DNA from: Xanthomonas sacchari
GTDB lineage: Bacteria > Pseudomonadota > Gammaproteobacteria > Xanthomonadales > Xanthomonadaceae
Reading direction: 5' to 3'
Assembly (NCBI RefSeq): GCF_024266585.1
Contig: NZ_CP100647.1
Span: 1,903,001 to 1,967,000, forward strand
DNA: 64,000 nucleotides
In this document: positions 4,400 to 55,930 of the stretch, in pieces
Position numbering within the stretch: the stretch's first letter is position 1
How the letters are laid out: every line of letters begins with the position of its first letter
Made by a program: the position numbers and the translations under genes
The notes under the pieces: generated by a model
Seen by the model: the letters and a program-made list of their open reading frames with translations, nothing else
Told to the model about the DNA's origin: nothing
The model's database searches: none

Positions 4400-5851
4400 A
4401 TGAAACGTGCGATGGGACTCGTGGCATTGGTCTGTGTGGTGGTCGCGGCGTGCTCCGCGGTGAATCCGGGCCCGGGTCCCAATCCCGGCAGCGGGGGCGG
4501 TACGCCCACGCCCACGCCGCGGCCCGCATCGGGGCCGGCGCCCAGCGCGGAGGCCTGCGCACCGCCAGCGCCGCCGGCGCCCTCGTGGTTCCCGCATGCG
4601 CAGACGCCGGCGCCGTATTCGGCCGGCTTCCAGTCCAGCAGCAATTGCGCCTTCCATCAGTGGTCGTGGAACGCCTTCCTGTGGCTGACCCAGGACGTGG
4701 GCGGGCAGCCGCGTTTCCTGACCATGAGCAGCGACGGCATCGGCGGCGTTGCCGACGGCGTGCTCGATCCGTTGATCGGTCGCTCACAGCAGGCGCGCAC
4801 GGTGGAACTGATTGACCAGGCAGGCCCGGATGGCGTGCTGGTGGATCGCCATGGACGTGCGGTCTATTACTCGATCCACTCCAATAAAGATTTTGGCGAT
4901 TTCATCGCCGACAATAACCTGAAGAATCCGAACGCCCTGCGCGCATTCGATCCGCATAAGTCCTTTAAGGTCGGCAGCATGACCCTGAAGGCGGCATGGA
5001 AGGTGGTGCAGCCGGGCGAGGACGTGTCCACGTTCTATACCCGCCAGGCGCAGATCGCCAAGCTGGGCATGCGCAAGGGCAAGATCGTCGCTACCGGCGA
5101 CACCGAAACCCAGATGGTGGCGCTGGTCGGCTTCCACATCGGCGGCACGGTCAACGGCCATCCGGAAATGATCTGGGCCACGTTCGAGCACCGCGACAAT
5201 GCGCCGGACGTGGATACGCCGCTCGATCCGGGCCAGCCCGTCTCCGACAAGGACTGGACGTTCTACAAGGCCGGTACCCCGATCGAACAATGCAATGTCA
5301 ACGCCGCGGGTGCCGGTGCGCTGACATTGAACGCGCAGACCCAGACCTTGAGCCCGGTGACCCAGGTCTGCCGCATGGTGCCCTACGGCGGCCAGAAGCC
5401 GTGCCCGCTGGGATCGACGGACTGCAACATTCCCAATATCAAGTCGATCAACGCCTCGGTGCAGGCGCAGTTGCACGACGTGTGGAAAAACTACTTCGAG
5501 GTCGGCGCGATCTGGTTCGTCGCCGAAGACGCGTTGGCGCCCGATTGCACATTCCAACCAGGGTCGGCGCTGGAGTGCATTCCCTCGCCGACGCCGAAGG
5601 GCGCGCCGCCGCTGCTCACCGGCTCGATCAAGCTGTCCAATTCCACCATCGAGACCTTCACCCAGGTGCAGAGCACGCAGAACAACTGCTTCGCCTGCCA
5701 CAACACCACCCAGGTGATCTCGTCCGATCCGCGCGCGCAGTCGTTGCCGGGGCTGAACGTCAACATCAGCCACGTGGTGATCAACGACTACTTCCAGGCG
5801 CAGGTGCCGCAGAAGGCACCGCCAGCGGCGCGGCCGGCCACGTCGCGCTGA
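4400..5851 (+). CDS. Secreted lipoprotein with CXXCH motif, linked to LodA-like oxidase
   Basis: This 483-residue protein has a lipoprotein signal peptide with lipobox VAAC (lipidated Cys18). A proline-rich linker follows (residues about 23 to 65), then a globular domain beginning with CAFHQWSWNAFLWLTQ. Near the C terminus is one heme-c attachment motif, C430-F-A-C433-H434, within NNCFACHNTTQ. A mono-heme, envelope-anchored electron-transfer role is therefore possible, but I do not recognise an established cytochrome family and no axial Met can be assigned. ATG 4400 follows GAGGGGCGG and gives an intact signal peptide. The LodA-like gene begins 37 bases after its stop, so the two are probably co-transcribed and functionally linked. 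Confidence 0.8.
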   Translation: MKRAMGLVALVCVVVAACSAVNPGPGPNPGSGGGTPTPTPRPASGPAPSAEACAPPAPPAPSWFPHAQTPAPYSAGFQSSSNCAFHQWSWNAFLWLTQDVGGQPRFLTMSSDGIGGVADGVLDPLIGRSQQARTVELIDQAGPDGVLVDRHGRAVYYSIHSNKDFGDFIADNNLKNPNALRAFDPHKSFKVGSMTLKAAWKVVQPGEDVSTFYTRQAQIAKLGMRKGKIVATGDTETQMVALVGFHIGGTVNGHPEMIWATFEHRDNAPDVDTPLDPGQPVSDKDWTFYKAGTPIEQCNVNAAGAGALTLNAQTQTLSPVTQVCRMVPYGGQKPCPLGSTDCNIPNIKSINASVQAQLHDVWKNYFEVGAIWFVAEDALAPDCTFQPGSALECIPSPTPKGAPPLLTGSIKLSNSTIETFTQVQSTQNNCFACHNTTQVISSDPRAQSLPGLNVNISHVVINDYFQAQVPQKAPPAARPATSR

Positions 5852-5888
5852 GGCACGCCCCTCTCATCCGGATCAGGAGCAAGTCACC

Positions 5889-7967
5889 ATGACCAGCAAC
5901 GTGTTTCGCGTGCATCCGGCGATCGGCATCGGCCGCGTCGGCGACAGCCAGGAGTTCTATTTGGCACCGGTCACCGCGGCCGGTACCCGCGACGCCGACG
6001 GCCTGTTCGGCGGACTGCCGGTGCAACCGGGAACCGAGTCCACGCCGATTGCCGAGCACGACTTCCGCGATGCCGCCGGCAACGTCAAGCGCCAGGCCGC
6101 GCGCTTCCACATCTATGCTTACCCCAGTGGCAGTTCCGGCGCGTATCCCAACGGCGGCGGCGTGCGCGTGGACGTCGGCAGCACGATCGACGGCAAGACC
6201 GTCAAGGACATCGTGTGGACCGTGCACTTGGCCAACAAGAAGCTCAACAACTATTCGACGGTCACCCTGGACGAACACAACAATCCACAGTTCATTGGCA
6301 TCGAGGCGTATGGGCCGCATCCAACGTATCTGCCACGGCTGCGCAATCCGGATTACGCCGGTTCGTCCGACCCAAACAATCCGGTTCGCCTGCTGCAGCT
6401 TGTCATCGATCCGGGACCGCGCGCGATCAGCGCCGCCTCAGGCAATGCAGCGGTCGTCGCCTTCGACATGACCACCACCGCCAGCTACGCCGATGCCAGC
6501 GGCGCGATCCACTCGCAGCCGTCCTATCCGGTCAGCTTCCCGTCGATGTTCCACACGCTGCACGAGCCGCTCGGCAAGCTCGATTCGTTGGGCGACCTGC
6601 GGGTGCAGGCGGATGGTGCGTTGATCGTGGCCGGCGGCTTCGCCCGGACTTCGGCGGTGAGAGGGGCCGACGGCACCTATCCGGCATTGAACGATGCGAC
6701 CGAGAACGGCCTGTGGTACGACGATGCCGCCGATGGCCCGGTCAATGCCGTGCTGATCTTCACCGACGGCAGCACCGCCAGCGTGCAGGGCGCGTGGTAC
6801 GTCACCGGCGATCCGGGCTATGCGCCGCAGACGCGCAACGTGGTCTCCACCTGGGACGATGTCTACGACGTGTGGGTGCGCCAACTGGGGTTGGTGCCGT
6901 CGCTGTACGCCAACAACGCCTTCGTCGGCGCTTACCAGCCGTCCTTCAGCGACGACATCCAGCCGATCTTCCATGCAGCGATGCTGCAGCGCTGGAACAC
7001 CAACCTGCCGTCGGGCGCGGTCAAGGGCCACGACATGATCGGACAGATCCAGCCCACCGACGATCCGGGCGCGAAGATTCCCAACCTGAAGACGCTGATC
7101 CGCGACCCGGCCTCGGCCGCCGACACAGAGACCGGCTCGCCGATGATGCCGCTGTCGCTCGGCGACGCGCAGAAGAGCTTCCTCAGCGTCAGTGCCACCC
7201 AGTACTTCCTGCTCAGCCAGTGGCACGAAAAAAAATGCAAGCAGGGTGACGCTCCGAAGCTGGGTTCCGGCGAACTGCTGGACAGGGTCACGTTGCAGAA
7301 TTGCCTCGGCGGCCGCTACAGCCCGGGCATCGAGGTGTCGTTCCCGATTCGCGACATCAATCTCTACGTGCAGGACTGGAAGACCCAGGACTGCGGTCCG
7401 TTCCGCATCAACCAGGCTTCGCTGGACTACAGCAAGGCGAGCAAGGACCGCGCGTTCCTGAGTTTTGGCTATGTGCCGCTGCAAACGCATCCGGTGGAGC
7501 CGGGCGACCTGTCCAAGTTCATGTCGGTGCCCTGGCATACCGACTACAACTCCTGCGCGACCCATCTGCCCGATCCCAACCCGGGCCAGCAAACGGTCAA
7601 CCCGAACAACACCTTGTTCTGGTCGTGGCCGGCCGAGCGGCCGTTCGCGGTGTACCCGGCGGCGCTGTGTCAGGTCGATCCGGACGACGACACCTGGTAC
7701 CTGGGACCGCAGGTGTACTCGGTGCGCGGCGCCGGCACCGACAGCCCGTATCCGACCAGGGCCGGACGCTTCCAGGCGTACGCGGACTTCGTCGCCAATT
7801 GGTCCAGGGTCGGCTTCGTCATCAGTGGCGCGCAGATCGCGCAGGTGCCCGGCAAGCCGCCGTATCCGCCCGAGTTGTTCCTCGAAGTGGCGAGCCAGTT
7901 CGATCCGGGCAAGGAATTCGTGGCGCCCTGGCCGATGGCCAATGTTCCCGTCGATCCGAAGGTATGA
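5889..7967 (+). CDS. LodA/GoxA-like CTQ-dependent oxidase
   Basis: This 692-residue protein begins FRVHPAIGIGRVGDS, the family start of LodA (lysine epsilon-oxidase) and GoxA (glycine oxidase). These use a cysteine tryptophylquinone made from their own Cys and Trp. The likely pair here is Cys472 (LQNCLGGRYSPGIEVSF) and Trp549 (MSVPWHTDY). LodA has a conserved Asp four residues before the Cys; here that position is Thr468 and the nearest Asp is 465. There is no signal peptide, as in the family. The product would be an aldehyde or keto acid, NH3 and H2O2; the amino-acid substrate cannot be read from sequence. An A8 run lies at 7228-7235. A LodB-like maturase gene follows, as expected. Confidence 0.88.
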   Translation: MTSNVFRVHPAIGIGRVGDSQEFYLAPVTAAGTRDADGLFGGLPVQPGTESTPIAEHDFRDAAGNVKRQAARFHIYAYPSGSSGAYPNGGGVRVDVGSTIDGKTVKDIVWTVHLANKKLNNYSTVTLDEHNNPQFIGIEAYGPHPTYLPRLRNPDYAGSSDPNNPVRLLQLVIDPGPRAISAASGNAAVVAFDMTTTASYADASGAIHSQPSYPVSFPSMFHTLHEPLGKLDSLGDLRVQADGALIVAGGFARTSAVRGADGTYPALNDATENGLWYDDAADGPVNAVLIFTDGSTASVQGAWYVTGDPGYAPQTRNVVSTWDDVYDVWVRQLGLVPSLYANNAFVGAYQPSFSDDIQPIFHAAMLQRWNTNLPSGAVKGHDMIGQIQPTDDPGAKIPNLKTLIRDPASAADTETGSPMMPLSLGDAQKSFLSVSATQYFLLSQWHEKKCKQGDAPKLGSGELLDRVTLQNCLGGRYSPGIEVSFPIRDINLYVQDWKTQDCGPFRINQASLDYSKASKDRAFLSFGYVPLQTHPVEPGDLSKFMSVPWHTDYNSCATHLPDPNPGQQTVNPNNTLFWSWPAERPFAVYPAALCQVDPDDDTWYLGPQVYSVRGAGTDSPYPTRAGRFQAYADFVANWSRVGFVISGAQIAQVPGKPPYPPELFLEVASQFDPGKEFVAPWPMANVPVDPKV

Positions 7968-18640: not shown

Positions 18641-18800
18641 CTAAAGCGAGTACCCGCACGGGACGTTCCTGATGCGGTCGGTGGAAGTGTGTTGTCCTTC
18701 TTCTCCGTCGCATCGCGTCCAGGCCGCAGGCCTGACGTTGTCTTGCGCGATCCCGGTCGTGGCGCGGGCTCCTCTCCTTTTCTCACCTGGTGCCCTCCAC

Positions 18801-21065
18801 ATGATCGGATTCCTTCAGCGCTACAACGTCGGGACGCGGCTCGCATCCGCCTTCGGCGTCCTCATCCTGCTCTCCTGTACGCTCGTCGTCGCGGGCCTGC
18901 TCACGTTGAAGCAGGCCCGCGAACTGATGGATACCATCGTCAATCGACGCATGCAGATCTTCGCCTACGCCAGCGAAATGCGCAGCGCCAGTTCGCAGAT
19001 CGCGATCAACCTGCGCAATATCGTGCTGCCGACCTCCCATGAAGAGAACGAGGGTTTCGCCAGGGTCATCGAGCAGCAGCGCCAGTACTACGAGCAGACC
19101 CACGACAAGCTGTACGCGATTCCCAACACCAGTCCGGTCGGCGTGCAGATGCGCAAGACGATCGACGCTGCCTACCAGCGCACACGCAGTGCCAACCAGG
19201 AGGTGCTGGATCTCGGCATGGCCGACAAGGACGCAGAGGCGCTGAAGGTGCTGATGAGCAAGGCGGCGCCGGCGACCAATCTGTGGCGCGAGGCGATCGA
19301 CACCTACGCCAACCGGCAGCGCGAGCAAAGCGCCAAGGCGTATGCGAGCGCCCAGGTGGCGATGGGCCGCGGCCGTGCCTTGCTGCTGGCCGGCGGCGCC
19401 ATCGTGGTTCTGGTCAGCGGTGTGCTGGCCTGGTTGATCACGCGTAGCCTGACCGTGCCGCTGACCCGCGCTACCCGCGTTGCCGAGGACATCGCCAACG
19501 GCAAGCTCGACAACGACGTGCGTACCGATGCCCGCGACGAGACCGGCCGTCTGATGGTGGCGATGCAGGGCATGCAGCAACAGGTGCGCAACCTGATCGG
19601 CGCACAACTGGAGATGGCCAAGCGCCACGACGCGGGCGAAGTCAGCCACCGTATCGAAGTGCAGGCCTTCCCCGGCGACTACGGGCGCATGGCCGCCGAG
19701 ACCAATGCATTGGTGGCCTCGCATCTGGCGGTCAAGAACCGCCTGGCGCAGATCATGGGCCGCTATGCGATCGGCGACCTGTCGCAAGACATGGACCGAT
19801 TGCCTGGCGAGGAAGCGGTGCTGAGCCAGACCATGGACGAGGTCAAGGCCAACCTGTCGGCGATGAATGGGCAGATCAAGCAGCTGGCGATCGCCGCCGC
19901 CGACGGCGACTTCAGCGCGCGCGGCGACGCCGAGCGCTTCCAGTACGACTTCCGGGTGATGGTGGAGAGCCTGAACCAACTGATGGCCACCGCCGACGGC
20001 AACCTGCAGGCGCTGTCGACGCTGCTGCAGGCGATCGCCGCAGGCGACCTGACCGCACGCATGCACGGCGACTTCAGCGGCGTGTTCGCGCAGATGCGCG
20101 ACGACGCCAATGCCACCGCCGAACAACTGGCCGGCATCGTCGGCCGCATCAAGCACTCGGCGGTATCGATCAACGCCGCGGCCAGCGAGATCGCCTCCGG
20201 CAACGACGACCTGTCGCGCCGTACCGAGCAGCAGGCCGCCAGCCTGGAAGAGACCGCCGCCTCGATGGAGGAACTGACCTCCACCGTGCGCCAGAACGCC
20301 GAGCATGCGCGCCAGGCCAACCAGCTGGCGGTCGGTGCCGCCGCGGTGGCCTCGCAGGGCGGCGCGGTGGTCGGTCAGGTGGTCGACACCATGAGCGGCA
20401 TCGAGGCCTCGTCGAAGAAGATCGCCGACATCATCAGCGTCATCGACGGCATCGCCTTCCAGACCAATATCCTGGCCTTGAACGCGGCGGTGGAAGCCGC
20501 GCGTGCGGGCGACCAGGGCCGCGGTTTTGCGGTCGTCGCCACCGAAGTGCGCACGCTGGCGCAGCGCTCGGCCAATGCCGCCAAGGAGATCAAGACGCTG
20601 ATCGACGACTCGGTCAGCCGCGTTGCCGAAGGCTCGGCGCTGGTCGACCAGGCCGGCAAGACGATGTCCGAGATCGTCAGCTCGGTGCAACGCGTCACCG
20701 ACATCATGGGCGAAATCTCCGCGGCCTCGCAGGAACAGACGGCCGGCATCGAGCAGGTCAACCAGACCGTCACCCAGATGGACGAGGGCACGCAGCAGAA
20801 CGCGGCGTTGGTGGAAGAGGCCAGTGCGGCGGCGCGTTCGATGGAGCAGCAGGCGGTGGAACTGAGCCAGGCGGTGGCGCTGTTCAAGCTGGACGCCGCG
20901 GCGGCCGCGCCGGTGGCGCAGGCGCCGCGGCGCCAGGCCAGCGCGACGTCGGCGGGCAAGCGCAGCGTCCGCCCGGCGGTGGCCACGGCCACCGCCGCAC
21001 CGGTACGGCACGCGGCGCAGCCGGCTGCGGCCGTGGCGCTGGACACGGACTGGCAGGAATTCTGA
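18801..21065 (+). CDS. Methyl-accepting chemotaxis protein (paralog 1)
   Basis: This 754-residue inner-membrane chemoreceptor has a first membrane helix at about residues 11-33, a periplasmic helical sensor to about 190, and a second helix at about 193-215 ([20 protein letters not shown]). HAMP and HAMP-like segments run to about 480, followed by the cytoplasmic signalling hairpin with the invariant tip [20 protein letters not shown]. It ends DTDWQEF, a CheR/CheB tether pentapeptide. The sensor is of the four-helix-bundle type; the ligand is unknown. ATG 18801 was chosen because the hydrophobic helix starts there and it matches its paralog. Confidence 0.95.
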
Positions 21066-21088
21066 ATCGTAGCACGGGTGTCATCGGG

Positions 21089-21113
21089 CGGGCGGCGCAA
21101 GGCGCGCCGCCCG
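21089..21113 (+). terminator. Hairpin after chemoreceptor 1
   Basis: CGGGCGGCGC and GCGCCGCCCG form a perfect 10-bp stem around the loop AAGGC, followed by TTCTGT. It lies 23 bases after the stop. Confidence 0.65.
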
Positions 21114-21678
21114 TTCTGTCGAAGGCCGGCGGTCGTGCTGCTGCCGGGATCGCGTCCAGCAGCCTGGACGCCCGCTGGTGCGGCCGCGATGCCGTGCCTG
21201 CCTCGGCGCGACGATCTGGTGCCGACCGATGCCAGGCCGCGTGCCTGTGCGCCGCGCGCTGCCCTCATCCCCGTCTTCGTTCTGCGCGCGTGCACGCCGC
21301 GCAGGCGGGCGTGTGCCGGTCTGCTTCACCTTAACGGCCGTCCCGCGTGCGCCCGACGCATCGCACACACGGCATGGCGTATCCGCTGACGTGCTTGGCT
21401 GCTGGCGCGCGACCCCGCGTTCCCTGTCGATATCAAGGCGTGATTGCGATCGCGCTCCTGGCCTGCGCCGTGCGCATGGACGGGCGGCGCGGTGCGCAAT
21501 CGCTCATCTTTTTTTCTGGCCTCGCGTTTCTACCGCAAGCAAGCGCCATGCCGTCCATTGCAACACGACGTACACGCAGCCTTCACGCAAAAACGCCGAT
21601 CCGGGCACTGTGTGAGCATGCCCTCCACACGCCGATGATGTGCCTGAGGGCGTTCAATAAATTCTTTGCAATCGCCTC

Positions 21679-21705
21679 TCAAGACGCGCGCGGAAGCGCC
21701 GTTAC
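21679..21705 (+). promoter_or_regulatory. FliA (sigma-28) type promoter of second chemoreceptor
   Basis: TCAAGACG at 21679-21686 and GCCGTTAC at 21698-21705, with the same spacing as the promoter before the first receptor and about 165 bases before the ATG. A shared CCCGCACGG word follows both. Confidence 0.72.
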
Positions 21706-21869
21706 TTTGCCCGCACGGTAAGCGGGCTGCGTCATCAAGCGTTTGATTCGGAACGCTTTTTCACGGGTTGTTCATCTTGTTTCCATGCCGGCGCGCACGA
21801 CGGCCAGTGGTCGCGTGCGCGATTCGGGGCGCTCCATTGCCTCTTCATTCCCCCAGACAGGCCTTTTCC

Positions 21870-24125
21870 ATGATTGCTTTCCTTCAGCGCTACAACGTTG
21901 GCGCCCGGCTCGCCACCGCGTTCGGCATCCTCATCCTGCTGTCCTCGGCGCTGGTCGTCGCCGGGCTGTTCACCCTGTTCCAGGCGCGCGAGCGGCTGGA
22001 CGGCATCGTCAACCGCAACATCGTCTCGATCCGCACCTCCAACGAGATGCTCAACGCGTGTTCGCTCATCGCCGTGAACGTGCGCAACATCGTGTTGCCG
22101 ACCTCCCAGGAAGACAATCTGCGTTTCGCCAGGGTCATCACCGAACAGCGCGCGCGCTACCTGGCGGCACGCAAGCGGGTCGGGGACATTCCCAGCAGCG
22201 CGCAGAGCCAGGCCGTGCTGGCGGAGGTCGACCGCACCCGGCAGATGACCGTGGACATCAACAACCGGGTGATGGATCTGGGCATGCACGGCAAGCCGGA
22301 TGAGGCGCTGGCCTTGCTGATGGCGCAGTCCGCGCCGTTGACGCAGAAGTGGCAGGACGCCATCGCCCGCTATGCCGATCTGCAGGCCTCGCGCAGCAGC
22401 GAGGCCTATGCGGCCGCGACGGCGGCGATGGCGCGTGGGCGCGCTATGCTCATCGCCGGCGGCCTGGCGGTGGTGCTGGTCAGCAGCCTGCTGGCGTGGA
22501 TGATCACCCGCAGCCTCACCGTGCCGCTGGCCCGCGCCACCCGCGCCGCCGAGGCCATTGCCGACGGGCGCCTGGACAACGACGTGGCTACCGACGCGCG
22601 CGACGAACCCGGCCGCCTGCTGCTGGCGATGGGCCGCATGCAGACCCAGTTGCAGCGCTTCTCCCACGAGACCGCGTTGATGATCGAACTGCACGCGGAC
22701 AAGGACATGCGCCACCGCATGCCGCAGGACTTCCCGGGCGTGTACGGCGAGTTGAGCAAGGGCATCAACACCATGATGTTCGAGCACCTGGACGCGATCG
22801 TCGACGCGATCGACGTGCTCAACGAATACGCCAACGGCGACCTGCGCCGCGACGCGCGTCGCCTGCCCGGCAGCCGCGCGGTACTGCACGAATCGATGGA
22901 TGCGGCCAAGGCCAGCCTGCTGGCGATCAACACCGAGATCAAGCGCCTGGCCGCGGCCGCCGCGGCCGGCGACTTCAGCGCCCGTGGCGACGCCGACCGC
23001 TTCCAGCACGACTTCCGGCTGATGGTGCAGGACCTCAACGCGATGATGGAGGTCAGCGATCGCAACCTGGGCAAGCTGTCGTCCCTGCTGCAGTCCATCG
23101 CCTCCGGCGACCTGACCGCGCGCATGCAAGGCGACTTCCAGGGCGTGTTCGCGCAGATGCGCGACGACGCCAACGCCACCGCCGACCAGTTGACCGGCAT
23201 CGTCGGCCGCATCCAGACCGCCGCGGTCAGCATCAATGCCGCTGCCAGCGAGATCGCCACCGGCAACGATGACCTCTCGCGCCGTACCGAGCAGCAGGCC
23301 GCCAGCCTGGAAGAAACCGCCGCCTCGATGGAGGAACTGACCTCCACCGTGAAGCAGAACGCCGAACACGCCCGCCAGGCCAACCAGCTGGCCAGCGGCG
23401 CAGCGGCGGTGGCCTCGCAGGGCGGCGCGGTGGTCGGCCAGGTGGTCGAGACCATGAGCGGGATCGAGGCCTCGTCGAAGAAGATCGCCGACATCATCGG
23501 CGTCATCGACGGCATCGCGTTCCAGACCAACATCCTGGCGCTCAACGCGGCGGTGGAAGCGGCGCGCGCCGGCGAGCAGGGCCGCGGCTTCGCGGTCGTC
23601 GCCAGCGAGGTGCGCACCCTGGCGCAGCGTTCGGCCAATGCCGCCAAGGAGATCAAGGCGTTGATCGACGATTCGGTGACCCGCGTCGCCGAGGGCTCGT
23701 CGCTGGTCGACCAGGCCGGCAGCACCATGCAGGAGATCGTGGCATCCGTGCAGCGCGTCACCGACATCATGGGCGAGATCTCGGCCGCCTCGCAGGAACA
23801 GTCGGCGGGTATCGAGCAGGTCAACCAGACCGTCACCCAGATGGACGAGAGCACCCAGCAGAATGCGGCGCTGGTGGAAGAAGCCACGGCGGCGGCGCGT
23901 TCGATGGAGCAGCAATCGGTGGAGCTGACCCAGGCGGTGGCGCTGTTCAAGCTGGAGGGCACGCATGCTGCAGCGCCGTCGCCAGCCCCGTCGCCGTCGC
24001 GCGCCAGGAATGTCGCGCCGACGACCACGCGCAGCCCGCGCCCGCAGACCGCGGCCGCGCCGGCACGACGCGCGCCGGCGTTCGCGGCGGCGGTGGCGCT
24101 GGACAAGGACTGGCAGGAGTTCTGA
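21870..24125 (+). CDS. Methyl-accepting chemotaxis protein (paralog 2)
   Basis: This 751-residue chemoreceptor is closely similar to the one before it: the same opening [19 protein letters not shown], the same HAMP/HAMP-like middle, nearly identical signalling hairpin and the same C-terminal tether (DKDWQEF). The periplasmic domain (about residues 33 to 190) differs most, so the two probably sense different ligands through a shared signalling core. The pair looks like a tandem duplication with a diverged sensor. It is followed by a UUCG-loop terminator. Confidence 0.95.
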
Positions 24126-30979: not shown

Positions 30980-32338
30980 CTAGAGCAGGACCAGCGTGGC
31001 CAGGCCGAGGAAGCTGAGGAAGCCCATCACGTCGGTCAGCGTGGTCAGGATCACCCCGCCGGCCAGCGCCGGATCGAAGCCCAGGCGCTTGAGCGTCAGC
31101 GGCACCAGCACGCCGCCCAACGCGGCGGTGAGCAGGTTGATGGTCAGCGCCGAGCCGATCACCAGCGACAGCAGCGGCTGCTTGAACCATAGCAGCACGA
31201 TCAGGCCCAGGCCGATGCCCAGCGCCAGACCGTTGATCAGCGCCACCGACAGTTCCTTGCGCAGCAGCACGATCACGTTGGAGGCGCCGATCTGGCCCAG
31301 GGCCAGGCCGCGCACCATCAGCGCCAGCACCTGGGTGCCGGCGTTGCCGCCCATGCCGGCCACGATCGGCATCAGGGCGGCCAGCGCCACCAACTTGGCG
31401 ATGGTGCCTTCGAACTGGCCGACCACGCTGGAGGCGATGAAGGCGGTGCCCAGGTTGATCGTCAGCCACAGCAGGCGGCGCCGGAACGCGCGCCGCACCG
31501 GGCTGAACAGGTCTTCGTCCTCGTCCAGGCCGGCCGCGCTCATCGCCTGGTGCTCGGCCTGGTCGCGGATGATGTCGACCACGTCGTCGATGGTGATGCG
31601 GCCGAGCAGGATGTTGTTGTCGTCCACCACCGGCGCGGAGATCCAGTCGTGGTCGGAGAACTGCCGCGCAACCTCGTCGGCGCCTTCGCCGACGTCGATG
31701 GCCGGCTGCTCGTCGTCGATCAGGCGGTTGATCGGCGTGGAGTCCTCGTGGGTCACCAATGCCGCCAGCGACACCCGCCCCAGGTACTGGTGGCGGCGGC
31801 TGACCACGAACAGGTGGTCGGTGTGGTCAGGCAGCTCGCCGCGCAGGCGCAGGTAGCGCAGCACCACGTCGACGTTGACGTCGGCGCGCACGGTGACCAC
31901 GTCCGGGTTCATCAGGCGGCCGGCGCTGTTCTCGGGATACGACAGCACCTGCTCGAGCCGCTCGCGGTTCTCGCGGTCCATCGACTTGAGCACTTCGTCG
32001 ATGACCGTGTCCGGCAGATCCTCGACCAGGTTGGCGAGGTCGTCGATGTCCAGGTCTTCGACCGCGGCGACGATTTCGTCCGGGTCCATGTCCGCGAGCA
32101 GGCTCTCGCGCACTTCCTCGCCGACGTGGACCAGCACCTCGCCGTCGTCCTCCGGATCGACCAGCCCCCACACCACCTCGCGCTTGCCCGGCGGCAGCGA
32201 CTCCAGCAGGTTGCCGATCTCGGCCGGCGCCAGCGTATTGACCAGTCGGCGCACCGGGCCCAGACGCCCGCTGTCCAGCGCATCGGACAGCATGCGTAGC
32301 TGCCGCGCGGTCTTGTCGTGGCGGACGGCGTCGGCCAT
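30980..32338 (-). CDS. mgtE: Magnesium transporter MgtE
   Basis: This 452-residue protein is a Mg2+ channel. It has an N-terminal MgtE helical domain (about residues 25-125, with LLADMDPDEIVAAVEDLD), a pair of CBS domains (about 130-255, containing HLFVVSRRHQYLGRVSL) that sense cytosolic Mg2+, and a five-helix pore (about 285-452) with VAGMGGNAGTQVLALMVRGL. Length and domain order are normal. Gating is by Mg2+ binding to the cytosolic domains in the family. It is monocistronic, and the AT-richer insert lies just upstream. Confidence 0.95.
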   Translation of the reverse strand: MADAVRHDKTARQLRMLSDALDSGRLGPVRRLVNTLAPAEIGNLLESLPPGKREVVWGLVDPEDDGEVLVHVGEEVRESLLADMDPDEIVAAVEDLDIDDLANLVEDLPDTVIDEVLKSMDRENRERLEQVLSYPENSAGRLMNPDVVTVRADVNVDVVLRYLRLRGELPDHTDHLFVVSRRHQYLGRVSLAALVTHEDSTPINRLIDDEQPAIDVGEGADEVARQFSDHDWISAPVVDDNNILLGRITIDDVVDIIRDQAEHQAMSAAGLDEDEDLFSPVRRAFRRRLLWLTINLGTAFIASSVVGQFEGTIAKLVALAALMPIVAGMGGNAGTQVLALMVRGLALGQIGASNVIVLLRKELSVALINGLALGIGLGLIVLLWFKQPLLSLVIGSALTINLLTAALGGVLVPLTLKRLGFDPALAGGVILTTLTDVMGFLSFLGLATLVLL

Positions 32339-32687
32339 GCGCTGCTCCCTTGGGGTGAGGCCGCGCTCCGAAGAAACGCGGTCGGTCAGATGTTCATCCC
32401 CACATTATCGCCTGCATGTTGCGGGAAGCACAGTGCCCGTCGACTGGCGCCAGGACTTCGTGAGTTGGGATCGCGCGCGGTATCGTCAGAGCCTGCGGTG
32501 CTGTGCTTTGTTGTGAGAGCGGCAGAGCATGCTTTTCCATCAGATGATGCCTGCCGCGCCACTATACAGTGATGGAATCAGTACGTGAAATAAGAGTTCG
32601 CCGGCTTCAGGTTGTAACTGGATTTCCTGCAGGCGGTCTGCGCTGGGTTGATTCAGATTGGCTGCATCGCGTCCGGCGTGCAGTGGC
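32339..32687. other. Start of the AT-richer insert, no gene seen
   Basis: The first 100 bases are the mgtE leader. From about 32500 the sequence turns AT-richer and continues so to 34130. No open frame with supporting features lies between 32339 and 32687. Confidence 0.5.
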
Positions 32688-33116
32688 TCATCCTTTATTT
32701 TCCGATAAAGGTGTGAAGCAAATAATTTGAGTAATCAGCAATACCGTTCCTCCTGGTACGTGGGTATCCCGTTTTACCAATCGGCCCTTCACTCGAATGG
32801 GGAGTGGATTGCTTGCTCCATGAAGCGCTGGTTGTCTGAATGCCGATTTCCGAAATTTTCTGACTAAAGTCGTGGTTTTTAGGTTTTCTGCGAATTCAAG
32901 CCACAAGCCAGATCCGGGTTTTTTTTCACAATCCTGGATGGAGACGCCGTGTCTGGTTCCAAGATAGCAGCCTGCTATGGTGATCTCTTGGTCCCAGGAT
33001 GGGTTCGTTATCAGTTGATGGACTGAAATGTCTGAAGTGGAATCTTGGCAGATTTGTGCGGGCGCGTGATGTGGGGTGGTGGCCATCAATAGGTAAGTTA
33101 GTGCTAGGCTTTTCAT
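32688..33116 (-). CDS. Candidate periplasmic immunity protein for the Rhs toxin
   Basis: This 142-residue protein has a signal peptide (MKSLALTYLLMATTPHHAPA) and a mature part with four Cys residues (QICQ, AGCY, QDCE, IICF), enough for two disulfides in the periplasm. I do not recognise a family. Its ATG overlaps the stop of the Rhs gene (ATGA, 33116-33113), the coupling and order typical of toxin/immunity pairs. A GTG nine bases upstream is a less likely start. Codon use is AT-richer than the window. Immunity is inferred from position and export, not homology. Confidence 0.7.
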   Translation of the reverse strand: MKSLALTYLLMATTPHHAPAQICQDSTSDISVHQLITNPSWDQEITIAGCYLGTRHGVSIQDCEKKPGSGLWLEFAENLKTTTLVRKFRKSAFRQPALHGASNPLPIRVKGRLVKRDTHVPGGTVLLITQIICFTPLSENKG

Positions 33117-34058
33117 GGCTCGCACTTTCCAAGGTTGCAGGTTGTTTCTACACTAGCTTTTGCTTGTTCACTGATATCGCTTTCGTTGCGCCCTGTGCCT
33201 GGCTCCCAAAAGCCCCATGGTGATCGGACCTGCAGGGACTCATGATAAGCAGCTTCCGCTCGATATGCTCGGTACTCGCCTCTGAGTAGTTCCTTGCGAC
33301 TGTTGGTCATCGGATCAAGGCCCCTTTTCAGTCGCTCGCGTTGATCGACTCCATGTGATCCCTCGTGGAGTGCGGTCGCGTCTAGTATGTTTTGCGCACT
33401 CGTATCGCGATCACTCATGCTTTTGATTGCTGACATGTTGAATGAGACGGTGGTGGTGGAGCCGATTGTTTCGGCCTTTCCATACGCTTCTATGTCGGTG
33501 TCATTTACCGCAACGCCATTGTCTACGCCTTCCTTCCCGTAGAAATTAGCCACAGCGGCGGATCGGGCGTCTTTGATCAGGGTGCCGGTCTGTGCGCGAG
33601 CCGATTGTGCGATTGAGCGGAGCGCCTTTCTTATACCCGTGCATAGTTCTTTGCTTCCCTTGCATACATAACGTCCATCCGGATCGATCGCTGAGAAGGG
33701 ATTGTTTGCTGCATAGGCATATCTGTTGAAGTTGGCTCCATTTTGCCGAGTCATTACTGGGTCAATTGACAAAAATCGTTCTATGCCGGAATCATAGTAA
33801 CGTTGCTGCATGTATGTAAGGCCGGTGGTCGCATCTTCGACATGACCGGTATAGCCGGGGCCATCGGCTTTCTGTGGGTTGAGAAGCGAGCCGAAAGGGT
33901 TCATAGTCGCGGCGTTCCGTGGTGTTTCGGTCTTTATCTGAAATGGCCACGATTGAGCCCAATGCATCTGTGTGGATGTAGTGCACTGTTTGTGCTGATG
34001 CGAATAATGGGAATGCGTTTAGTATGAAAATTGCAATCCAATTGCAGCGTGAGCACAT
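33113..34058 (-). pseudogene. Mini-Rhs protein with metallopeptidase-like tip, frameshifted
   Basis: Two frames together encode a short Rhs protein. The first (ATG 34058) gives a signal peptide (MCSRCNWIAIFILNAFPLFA, cleaved after ASA) and the start of the Rhs core, TVHYIHTDALGSIVAISDKD, as far as RRDYEPF. The second continues GSLLNPQKADGPGYTGHVED, YMQQRYYDSGIERFLSIDPV, then NNPFSAIDPDGRY, the usual core end. The frames join at 33894-33899 (CCCTTTC on the minus strand), where one extra base breaks the frame; total length is 3n+1, giving 314 residues if corrected. The tip has HEGSH (33353-33367) and a later EYRAYRAEAAYHE segment, a likely zinc peptidase. It may be inactive, slippage-corrected or a sequence error. 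Confidence 0.8.
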
Positions 34059-34132
34059 GGGGTGATCCTGAAAATCGGAAGTTTCGATTTATTGGCAAGA
34101 AATTTTTAGGTATTAAGGATGTCTTCGCATTT

Positions 34133-35848
34133 CTAAGTGGCACATGCAAGCCAGCGCTCGATGCCCTTGCGGTCGCGCGCCTGCAGCAGCTTGATGCCGC
34201 GCTGACGCAGCGCCTGCAGGTCGGTGTCGCGGATCACCTGGCGCACTTCCAGCATCGTCGCCGGGTGCAGGCTGAACTCGCGCAGCCCCAGCGCCAGCAG
34301 CATCGGGGTCAGCGCGGGGTCGCCGGCGATCTCGCCGCACACCGCCACCGGCTTGCCATGCGCCTGGCCGGTGGCGATCACCTGCGCGATCAGGCGCAGC
34401 ACCGCCGGATGCAGCGGCGAATACAGCTCGGCCAGCGCCTCGTTGTTGCGGTCGGCGGCGAGCAGGTACTGCACCAGGTCGTTGGTGCCGATCGACAGGA
34501 AGTCGATGGCGTCGATGAAGGTGTCCAGGGCGATCGCCGCCGCGGGGACCTCGATCATCGCGCCGAGCGTTACCCGCTCGGCGATGGCGTGGCCGTCGCG
34601 GCGCAACTGCGCGGCGATGCGCTTGAGATGGCGGCGCATCGCCATCAGCTCCTCGCGCGTGCTGATCATCGGCACCAGCACCCGCACCGGCCCGTAGGCC
34701 GAGGCGCGCAGCAGCGCGCGCAACTGGGTGTCGGAGACCTTGGGCCGGGCCAGCGACAGGCGCACGCCGCGCAGCCCCAGCGCCGGGTTTTCTTCGTTGC
34801 TCATGGTCAGCCCGGTGCGGTCGGCCTTGTCCGCGCCCAGGTCGAGGGTGCGGATGGTCACCGGCCGGCCGCTCATGCCCAGCACCGCGTCGCGGTAGGT
34901 GCGGAACTGCTCTTCCTCGTCGGGCAGGGCGTCGCGCTGCAGGAACAGGAACTCGGTGCGGTACAGGCCCAGGCCGTCGGCGCCGAGCGCATGCGCGCGG
35001 GCCACGTCGTCGCGCGACTCGGCGTTGGCCAGCAGGGTGATGTCCACGCCGTCGCGGGTGCGGCTGGGCTTGGAGCGCAGCTTGCCCAGGCTGCGCTGCA
35101 GCTTGGCCTGGTCGCGCACGCGGCTGCGGTAGTCGCGCAGGTCGTCCGGGGTCGGGTCGACCAGCACCGCGCCCTGGCTGCCGTCGATGATCAGCACGTC
35201 GCCGTCGTTGATCTTCTGCAACGCATCGGCGACGCCGACCACCAGCGGCAGGTGCAGGCTGCGCGCCAGGATCGCGCTGTGCGACAGGGTGCTGCCGGCG
35301 CTGGTGACGATGCCGACCACGCCCTGCGCCTGCAGTTGCGCCAGCTCCGACGGCGCCACGTTCTCGCACACCAGGATCTCGCCGGCCAGGCCGTCGCTGT
35401 CCGGCTGGCGCTTCTGCAGGAACGCATGGATCCGCCCGATCACATGGTCCAGGTCGTCCATGCGGCTCTTGAGGTAGGCGTCCTCCATGTCGTCGAACAC
35501 GGTTGCCAGGCGGTCGCGCTGCAGGCGCAGCGCGTAGTCGGCGCTGTAGCGGCCGGTGCGGATCAGTTCGTCCAGGCCGTGCAGCAGTTCCGGGTCGTCG
35601 AGCAGCAGCGCGTGCAGGTCGAGGAATTCGCCGACCTCCTTGGCCAGGGCGCCGTGCAGGCGCTGGCGCAGGCCGTGCATCTCTTCGCGCGCGGCATCCA
35701 CCGCGCGGTGCAGGCGATCGAGTTCCCCGGGGATCTGCGCGGCGCCGATGCGTTGCTCGGCCACCTCCAACGCGTGCGGCAGGCGCACCCGCGCCCGGCC
35801 CAGGGCATTGCCGCGCGATGCGCCATGGCCGGCGATGCGCACGCTCAT
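34133..35848 (-). CDS. ptsI: Phosphoenolpyruvate-protein phosphotransferase (enzyme I)
   Basis: This 571-residue enzyme transfers phosphate from PEP to HPr. The phospho-His lies in STLSHSAILARSLHLPLVVG (about residue 190). The PEP-binding domain carries GLYRTEFLFLQRDALPDEEE and the catalytic Cys in AVCGEIAGDP near residue 500. The start MSVRIAGHGASRG (35848) is the natural N terminus; upstream in-frame Met codons lie in a low-quality leader. It is the last gene of the PTS cluster, and the Rhs insert begins 75 bases after its stop. Confidence 0.96.
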   Translation of the reverse strand: MSVRIAGHGASRGNALGRARVRLPHALEVAEQRIGAAQIPGELDRLHRAVDAAREEMHGLRQRLHGALAKEVGEFLDLHALLLDDPELLHGLDELIRTGRYSADYALRLQRDRLATVFDDMEDAYLKSRMDDLDHVIGRIHAFLQKRQPDSDGLAGEILVCENVAPSELAQLQAQGVVGIVTSAGSTLSHSAILARSLHLPLVVGVADALQKINDGDVLIIDGSQGAVLVDPTPDDLRDYRSRVRDQAKLQRSLGKLRSKPSRTRDGVDITLLANAESRDDVARAHALGADGLGLYRTEFLFLQRDALPDEEEQFRTYRDAVLGMSGRPVTIRTLDLGADKADRTGLTMSNEENPALGLRGVRLSLARPKVSDTQLRALLRASAYGPVRVLVPMISTREELMAMRRHLKRIAAQLRRDGHAIAERVTLGAMIEVPAAAIALDTFIDAIDFLSIGTNDLVQYLLAADRNNEALAELYSPLHPAVLRLIAQVIATGQAHGKPVAVCGEIAGDPALTPMLLALGLREFSLHPATMLEVRQVIRDTDLQALRQRGIKLLQARDRKGIERWLACAT

Positions 35849-35906
35849 TGCGCCTGCCCCGTGCGGCGGCACCGCGTCCCTGCCTGCGGCCGCCGGCGGC
35901 GCATGC

Positions 35907-46415: not shown

Positions 46416-46837
46416 GGGCCAGGGGCAGGGCGCCGCCTAAGTGGCGCCCGCGTAGGGAGTGCGGTAGAGAGAGGCAAGGCCTGTCGTCACGCTCCATGTG
46501 CCGTGGATAGGAGTCGACGCGCGCCGTTTGGGGTCTGCTGCAACTCGCCAGCTGGTTTGCGCAAGACGATGCGCATCCGCGCGTCGGGGCTGAAGCCCCT
46601 CCCACATGGGAAGCACCACGGGCAGGGAATTGCTGTTGCGATTCCCCAATCCCGAATCCCGAATTCCGGCTCGCCGCGTCGCGGCTGAAGCCGCTCCTCA
46701 TGGGAAAAACCCGGGCGGGGAGCCGCTGTTGCGATTCCCCAATCCGGATTCCCCAATGCCGGCCCTCACACGGGAACGATCGCGGGCGGGGAGCTGCTTT
46801 CACGATTCCCCAATCCCCATTCCCCAATCCCGGCTCT
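46416..46837. other. Gap made largely of tandem composite repeats
   Basis: The 422 bases hold three tandem copies of a composite unit (a SMAG-like half, a GGGCGGGGAGC stretch and a GGGATTCGGGATT word). The last ends at the stop codon of the DUF3108 gene. Nothing coding is supported. Confidence 0.6.
46583..46836. repeat. Three tandem composite repeats (SMAG half plus GGGATT words)
   Basis: Unit 1: SMAG-like variant at 46583-46605 and ATTCCCCAATCCCGAATCCC at about 46641. Unit 2: SMAG half at 46678-46699 and ATTCCCCAATCC at about 46734. Unit 3: only the GATTCCCCAATCCCCATTCC part at 46804-46836 with a decayed SMAG half. Units are about 70-95 bases apart and share TTGCGATTCCCCAAT (TTTCACGATTCCCCAAT in unit 3). 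Confidence 0.7.
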
Positions 46838-55682: not shown

Positions 55683-55898
55683 GGAGAGCGTTCCGGACAC
55701 GGAGGGGGATCAGCGTCGGATCGTGCCAGATCGACCGTGCTGGCGTCGATGCTTGCGCGCGCGGCGCAGGCGGCACGGCCGATGCAAGGCCGGCCGCGCC
55801 ACGTAGCGATGACACTATCGGAAAGGCGCCGCGTCGGAGCCGACGCCTCTCCCACCGCAAACAGGGGGGCGAATCAGGTACTCAGGAAACCGGCTTCG

Positions 55899-55930
55899 CC
55901 AATCCCCAATCCCCAATCCCGACTCCCGGC
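55899..55930 (-). repeat. GGGATTGGGGATT-type repeat before the M20 peptidase stop
   Basis: Reads CCAATCCCCAATCCCCAATC on the plus strand, ending a few bases before the peptidase stop codon. Confidence 0.65.

What the first reader, a model, noticed from the sequence alone, without database searches (positions are those of the whole stretch)
32688..34058. Stand-alone secreted mini-Rhs toxin with a coupled periplasmic immunity candidate
The sequence shows a signal peptide fused directly to the last part of the Rhs core and then a novel tip, with no long YD-repeat shell. A second exported protein starts in the ATGA overlap and has four Cys residues. Rhs tips are generally toxins with cognate immunity proteins encoded next to them. 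A toxin that reaches the periplasm or outside by a Sec signal, rather than inside a shell, would be unusual. Function is inferred.
Basis: partly seen in the sequence, partly recalled or inferred. Interest (0 to 1): 0.78.

Follow-up and report, generated by a model that had tools for sequence, protein, structure and literature searches.

The report
Broken warhead of split Rhs toxin
A bacterium related to Xanthomonas carries a stray, frame-broken gene for the toxic part of a bacterial weapon next to its still-intact likely antidote gene, and its relatives suggest that this weapon is normally made as two or three separately exported proteins, one of which is a swappable toxic part.

Summary
On the minus strand between a PTS enzyme I gene (ptsP) and mgtE lie a signal peptide plus Rhs-core start, then (other frame) the rest of the core and a new tip, then an exported small protein in an ATGA overlap. 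The toxin gene is frame-broken. The reading needs correction: the format is not shell-less by design. In the 20 held genomes of this genus I found 35 such mini-Rhs genes in 15; 24 sit just downstream of a YD-repeat shell with an export signal, 5 are array members, 6 are orphans including this one. Shells and mini-Rhs proteins tile longer Rhs proteins end to end. A Stenotrophomonas record has shell, mini-Rhs with this tip family and partner gene as an overlapping trio. The layout tamB / 1398-aa shell / mini-Rhs matches the published Bcn-A bacteriocin locus, where shell gene and ORF4 are both needed, T2SS is needed and ORF5 is immunity. So the window most likely holds an orphan, now broken, warhead-immunity cassette of a T2SS-exported split-Rhs bacteriocin, with a four-Cys HExxH tip. 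Cage assembly, protease activity and neutralisation are inferred; structure prediction never became available.

The parts
33897..34058 (-). signal peptide and first ~32 residues of the Rhs core (in-frame part of the 88-aa ORF 33792-34058)
   Evidence: G006 counterpart 70% identical over 54 residues
33671..33895 (-). rest of Rhs core (TIGR03696), in another frame than the signal peptide; keeps the two Asp of the core (..LSIDP..NPFSAIDPDGR)
33113..33670 (-). toxin tip (185 aa + stop), new family with HExxH and four conserved Cys
33353..33367 (-). HEGSH zinc-peptidase-like motif (tip residues 102-106)
   Evidence: HExxH invariant in 9 of 9 aligned tips; position
32688..33116 (-). exported small protein, immunity candidate (142 aa), ATGA overlap with tip stop
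32339..34132 (.). inserted cassette between mgtE and ptsP (51% G+C); spacer is 186-606 nt in the 18 other genus genomes besides G006

Best explanation
The locus is an orphan warhead-immunity cassette of a split-Rhs (Bcn-A-type) bacteriocin system. Shown by sequence: the Rhs protein is divided over separate genes, each with an apparent signal peptide: a YD-repeat shell (in a few loci itself in two parts) and a mini-Rhs consisting of the last ~100 core residues plus a swappable tip, usually followed by an immunity-like gene; the window holds one such mini-Rhs plus partner, inserted away from any shell, with the mini-Rhs broken by a frame change and the partner intact. Inferred: shell and warhead are exported by Sec and T2SS and assemble outside the cytoplasm into an Rhs cage whose end is closed by the mini-Rhs core; the core's two Asp cut the tip free (role recalled from known Rhs proteins); this tip is a disulfide-stabilised zinc peptidase acting in the envelope of competing bacteria; the small exported protein blocks it in the producer's periplasm. 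In this strain the toxin is probably off and the partner kept as protection or not yet lost.
For: Census: 35 mini loci in 15 of 20 genomes; 24 with a shell directly upstream, 5 array members, 6 orphans. The four shells tested have RHS repeats but no TIGR03696. Tiling: on G113_L036 (1614 aa) all four shells end at 1310 and three complete minis start at 1324; on G111, G058 and G081 the joint lies within about 22 residues. Stenotrophomonas sp. HITSZ_GD: shell 1825 aa, mini with the window's tip family, lipoprotein-like partner, both junctions overlapping. Xanthomonas-genus G227/G228: TamB gene, shell 1397/1398 aa, mini 326/304 aa, matching Bcn-A (ORF1 TamB, ORFA 1398 aa, ORF4 290 aa with signal peptide, ORF5 145 aa immunity; ORFA, ORF4 and xpsD needed; PMC7259588). 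A printed helix of Bcn-A ORF4 has its best match among my loci in a mini-Rhs tip (61% over 18 aa, E 6.6e-4, next 0.029). TssB absent from 13 of 20 genus genomes, the own one included; GspD in 20 of 20. Tip and partner under purifying selection between two species.
Against: No physical evidence that shell and mini bind. On G146_L034 the shell and mini alignments overlap by 34-49 residues rather than abut. Six minis, this one included, have no shell in the upstream sequence fetched. The Bcn-A record itself is not among the held genomes, so identity of layout rests on gene order, lengths, one primer and one helix string: of 10 primers of that paper only one (ORFA end) hit where expected, 3 hit only places that I did not link to shell or mini, 6 hit nothing. 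The authors of the Bcn-A paper regard ORFA as the toxin and ORF4 as secondary. The four genomes with weaker tip matches (G058, G146, G111, G113) are not among the 15 with a partner match. No solved or curated family supports the peptidase assignment; no structure model was obtained.
Confidence: 0.7

Rival explanations
1. Autonomous secreted mini-toxin: the mini-Rhs is exported by its signal peptide and acts without any shell.
For: Orphan loci without a shell in the upstream sequence fetched (2.3 to 30 kb): window, G006:1773915, G006:5204458, three in G010. Core retains the two Asp.
Against: 24 of 35 minis follow a shell; shell plus mini tile longer Rhs proteins; Bcn-A needs its shell gene for killing. 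Orphans could use a shell encoded elsewhere, as reported for an orphan toxin locus of a Tc complex (PMC11067744, abstract seen).
Confidence: 0.15
2. Ordinary debris: a displaced C-terminal module of a full-length Rhs gene that decayed, never a gene of its own.
For: The window copy and the G006 copy are both broken; long Rhs with the same tip family exists.
Against: Apparent signal peptide directly before the core in 35 loci; dN/dS 0.09 in the tip and 0.21 in the SP-plus-5'-core part between species; complete minis of the same tip family in G014, G018 and Stenotrophomonas.
Confidence: 0.1
3. The frame change is a sequencing error and the window gene is intact.
For: Frame errors are a common assembly fault; tip and partner look well conserved.
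Against: The genome is one contig at 100% completeness and 0.02% contamination; G006 carries an independent in-frame stop, so loss at this locus seems to happen.
Confidence: 0.1
4. The small protein is not an immunity protein but an unrelated exported protein that happens to be coupled.
For: Weak profile matches (E 4.5e-7 to 0.009) in 8 other genomes; the loci of 5 of those 8 were looked at and show no tip or core in the ~1.5 kb on either side. The four weaker tip carriers lack a partner match.
Against: All 7 genomes with a tip at E 2.2e-22 or better have a relative of the small protein next to it; Bcn-A ORF5 in the same position is immunity by experiment.
Confidence: 0.15

Closest known systems
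Bcn-A bacteriocin locus of Xanthomonas perforans (PMC7259588; passages and one section seen)
   Same: TamB upstream, 1398-aa Rhs-like ORFA, small ORFs, signal-peptide ORF4 of 290 aa with some identity to RhsA/WapA, 145-aa immunity ORF5; T2SS dependent
   Different: Paper treats ORFA as the toxin and ORF4 as secondary; in what I read it does not describe a split Rhs. The window cassette has another tip, no shell beside it and is broken
TcB/TcC of Tc (ABC) toxins, incl. an orphan toxin locus of Yersinia entomophaga (PMC11067744, abstract and outline seen; general Tc anatomy recalled)
   Same: Rhs cage made of two polypeptides, one bearing the swappable toxic end; an orphan locus can supply the toxic part
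   Different: Here the toxic partner carries only the last ~100 core residues, has its own signal peptide and an immunity partner; a TcA was not searched for
WapA / Sec-exported full-length Rhs polymorphic toxins (partly recalled; Sec/T2SS export of RHS toxins in a table of PMC3482391, passage seen)
   Same: Signal peptide, YD repeats, variable C-terminal tip, immunity gene
   Different: One polypeptide there; two or three here
Tox-MPTase1-5 toxin domains (PMC3482391, passages seen)
   Same: HExxH metallopeptidase-type tips behind Rhs repeats
   Different: No profile match found here; four conserved Cys and own sequence family; membership not shown
Displaced orphan Rhs/CDI C-terminal modules (recalled)
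   Same: Tip-immunity pairs away from the main gene
   Different: Those lack a signal peptide and start; here a complete exportable gene format

Membership tests
Rhs polymorphic toxin | Rhs core (TIGR03696) ahead of a variable tip | tested here: met
   E 2.5e-20; tips 21% vs core 70% identity in 30 minis
Rhs polymorphic toxin | YD-repeat shell in the same polypeptide | tested here: not met
   No RHS_repeat in the window ORFs; shell is a separate gene in 24 of 35 related loci
Rhs polymorphic toxin | cognate immunity gene directly downstream | tested here: inconclusive
   ATGA-coupled exported protein found with the tip in 7 of 7 stronger cases, not in 4 weaker; neutralisation untested
Bcn-A-type split Rhs system | secreted shell without core and tip upstream | tested here: not met
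   No RHS_repeat match within the window and no shell in the 30 kb upstream; own genome has a two-part shell beside a TamB gene elsewhere
Bcn-A-type split Rhs system | signal-peptide mini-Rhs followed by immunity gene | tested here: met
   (toxin frame-broken; signal peptides judged by eye and hydrophobicity; immunity inferred)
Bcn-A-type split Rhs system | T2SS-dependent export | not testable with these tools
   GspD present in own genome and 20 of 20; dependence known only for Bcn-A
T6SS Rhs effector | T6SS in the genome | tested here: not met
   No TssB (TIGR03358) match in own genome; 7 of 20 in genus
Zinc metallopeptidase (zincin) toxin | HExxH plus downstream Glu | tested here: met
   H102 E103 H106, E132, E139 invariant in 9 of 9 tips; which Glu binds metal unknown
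Zinc metallopeptidase (zincin) toxin | zincin fold or curated family match | tested here: inconclusive
   No PDB-sequence, Pfam or NCBIfam match for the window tip; structure prediction unavailable
TcB/TcC toxin pair | TcA pore component and TcB partner | not tested
   not searched

The most novel reading that the evidence does not exclude
Xanthomonas-group bacteria build an Rhs toxin cage outside the cytoplasm from two or even three separately exported polypeptides, so that one shell can be loaded with many interchangeable warhead proteins, including orphan cassettes such as this one supplied in trans from elsewhere in the chromosome; the known bacteriocin Bcn-A is such a split cage whose real warhead is ORF4.
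Probability: 0.5. Interest if true: 0.82.

Novelty: new variant of a known kind. Interest (0 to 1): 0.64.

Why it matters
Outside the Tc toxins, Rhs cages are generally described as one chain folded around its toxin (recalled). A cage divided over two or three exported proteins, with warheads kept as separate swappable genes, would make assembly outside the cell, loading in trans and warhead exchange directly testable, and would reinterpret a published Xanthomonas bacteriocin (Bcn-A) in which two genes are needed for killing. It also gives a rule for annotating short 'RHS repeat-associated core' genes of this family as warheads rather than fragments.

Tried and rejected
Autonomous shell-less toxin as main reading: set aside because of the shell census and tiling. 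T6SS delivery: rejected for this genome. Phage or plasmid origin: no tip match in viral contigs (pattern-based scan), plasmids or phages. Translational recoding at the frame change was considered and set aside: G006 has a stop within about three codons of the same place, but by eye no slippery site or restart common to both was seen; the closeness of the two lesions stays unexplained. Finding the Bcn-A ORF4 by its primer in 35 Xanthomonas-genus genomes: two hits with 3 mismatches, both among unrelated genes. The small proteins between shell and mini matched nothing solid (DUF5992 E 0.0066 in 1 of 8, NUC153 E 0.006 in 2 of 8; PDB hits at E 0.17 or worse). A 9-row tip alignment was too divergent for a collection scan; a 4-row one found 2 loci in the one-genome-per-species collection of 84,980 (pattern-based, so a lower bound). 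The census motif missed one locus (G011:3675305), found with the relaxed motif; three minis without a clean core boundary and the two broken copies were dropped from the core count, and one of those three (G010:1597388) itself lacks the end of the core. Nine paper searches (open-licence PMC only) listed no title or abstract start that describes a split Rhs with a separate exported warhead; apart from PMC7259588 and PMC3482391 (passages; one section of the former) and PMC11067744 and PMC13018210 (abstract and outline) I saw listings only.

Full report
What is there. On the minus strand between a PTS enzyme I gene (34133-35872, called ptsP here) and mgtE (30980-32338; both by Pfam) the window holds, in order: an apparent signal peptide fused to the first part of an Rhs core (ORF 33792-34058), the rest of the core and a ~185-aa tip in another frame (ORF 33113-33967), and a 142-aa exported protein whose ATG overlaps the tip's stop (32688-33116). 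The core part matches TIGR03696 at E 2.5e-20; tip and small protein match no Pfam, NCBIfam or PADLOC family. In the PDB search by sequence all 27 matches of the 284-aa piece centre on the core, some running up to about 20 residues into the tip; profiles of tip and partner find nothing up to E 5, and the small protein alone finds one chain at E 2. The cassette has 51% G+C against 69% and 72% in its neighbours. The toxin gene is frame-broken inside the core. Signal peptides here and below were judged by eye and hydrophobicity, not by a trained predictor.

A shared insertion, independently broken. Of 20 held genomes of the genus, 18 have a ptsP-mgtE spacer of 186-606 nt; in the window genome and in G006 mgtE lies beyond the 1.5 kb fetched, and both carry the cassette there. 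G006 keeps the tip at 90% and the small protein at 72% identity but has an in-frame stop in the core, within about three codons of the window's frame change. dN/dS between the two is 0.09 for the tip (185 codons), 0.34 for the small protein (141), 0.11 for the 3' core (75) and 0.21 for the signal peptide plus 5' core (53 codons, one stop codon left out). The tip was therefore under selection for most of the time since the two species parted, and the lesions look recent.

The tip. Among 199 genomes (own included) 11 have a tip match at E 0.001. An alignment of 9 tips (25-90% identity to the window's) keeps HExxH, two downstream Glu, one Trp and four Cys, two near each end, without exception: a zinc-peptidase-like signature in a protein that probably folds in an oxidising compartment (inference). 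The tip family occurs both in mini format (G062, G014, G018) and in long proteins (G081, 1043 aa; more distant tips in G058, G146, G111, 1664-1722 aa). Copies in G001 and Xanthomonas sp. LMG 31884 (L110) also have interrupted tip frames.

The partner. A profile of four small proteins finds 15 of 249 genomes at E 0.01. All 7 genomes with a tip at E 2.2e-22 or better have it directly downstream of the tip; 8 others are weak (E 4.5e-7 to 0.009), and the loci of 5 of those 8 were inspected and have no tip or core within about 1.5 kb. The four genomes with weaker tip matches are not among the 15. The L109 and L110 partners look like lipoproteins. Immunity function is inferred.

Not shell-less: a split Rhs. 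A census of the genus gave 35 mini-Rhs loci with a signal-peptide-like start in 15 of 20 genomes; G001, G002, G009, G016 and G017 gave none. 24 lie just downstream of a large YD-repeat protein, 5 follow another mini in an array, 6 are orphans (my count over both tables). Ten shells (1736-1933 aa) end at the start of the mini, overlapping it in the case whose coordinates I checked (L032; also L109). Eleven (1386-1441 aa) and three short ones (840-872 aa) end 0.76-1.76 kb before the core; in those examined they end in LYQLLL or LYQMLL and are followed by small exported-looking proteins, then the mini. The four shells tested have RHS repeats but no TIGR03696. Aligned to long Rhs proteins, shells and minis abut: on the 1614-aa G113 protein the four shells end at 1310 and three complete minis start at 1324; on G111, G058 and G081 the joint is within about 22 residues; on G146 the alignments overlap by 34-49. 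In three genomes (own at about 113-119 kb, G010, G014) the shell is itself in two parts, each with an apparent signal peptide; in G010 a transposase-like gene lies between them; a TamB gene lies upstream. Cores are 70% identical (median, 435 pairs of 30 minis) and tips 21%, in 20 clusters of 32. Of the 33 minis other than the window's and G006's, 31 have an ORF of 60 aa or more starting close to their stop and 11 end in ATGA (mechanical ORFs, and one of the 33, G010:1597388, lacks the core's end). Minis occur in 10 of 13 genomes without TssB and 5 of 7 with it, while GspD is in 20 of 20. In the named record of Stenotrophomonas sp. HITSZ_GD a shell (1825 aa), a mini with the window's tip family and the partner gene overlap end to start.

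Link to a tested system. The X. perforans Bcn-A locus (PMC7259588; passages and one section read) has TamB upstream, ORFA 1398 aa, ORF2 124, ORF3 100, ORF4 290 aa with a signal peptide and some identity to RhsA/WapA, and ORF5 145 aa. Deleting ORFA, ORF2 or ORF4 abolishes killing, ORF5 gives immunity, and the xpsD mutant loses activity. Of 10 primers of that paper one (ORFA end) occurs, with 1-2 mismatches, only upstream of those two minis among the loci then held; 3 hit only places I did not link to shell or mini and 6 hit nothing. One ORF4 helix string best matches a mini tip. I conclude, as inference, that Bcn-A is a split Rhs and ORF4 its warhead; the authors see ORFA as the toxin.

How it most likely works. 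Shell and warhead go through Sec and T2SS, meet outside the cytoplasm, and the mini core closes the cage; both Asp of the core are kept in 33 of 34 cores by eye on the output (29 by the motif), and in known Rhs proteins such Asp release the tip (recalled). The window cassette would have supplied one such warhead, with a peptidase-like tip, to a shell encoded elsewhere; it is now broken while its partner gene remains.

Limits. No complex or fold model could be made. The Bcn-A record is not among the held genomes.

Noticed in passing
G000:C1 about 112,600-118,900 (L136): The window's own genome has a Bcn-A-like locus beside a TamB gene with the shell in two parts (616- and 872-aa frames), small exported-looking proteins and an uninterrupted 347-aa mini-Rhs with another tip.
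   Followed up: partly
window near 33897 and L027 near 10844: The frame change here and the stop in G006 fall within about three codons of each other in the core, by chance or for a reason not seen.
   Followed up: partly
L031 8114-8428, L126 6369-7089, L125 2848-3156 and alike: One to three small exported-looking proteins (~105-130 aa) sit between shell and mini; no family found beyond weak hits (DUF5992, NUC153); Bcn-A ORF2 in that place is needed for killing.
   Followed up: partly
L100 (G010:C1:2306500-2322500): Array of four mini-Rhs genes with near-identical signal peptides and four different tips behind one shell, with a second shell end between the first two: looks like a warhead-swapping site.
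   Followed up: partly
L132 (G010) 5775-6791: A transposase-like gene lies between the two shell parts.
   Followed up: no
window 18800-23126: Repeat blocks 3.06-3.07 kb apart (73-78% identical), probably two paralogous genes in tandem.
   Followed up: no
window 46619-46834 and 55879-55930: Short repeats rich in AATCCCCAATCCC.
   Followed up: no
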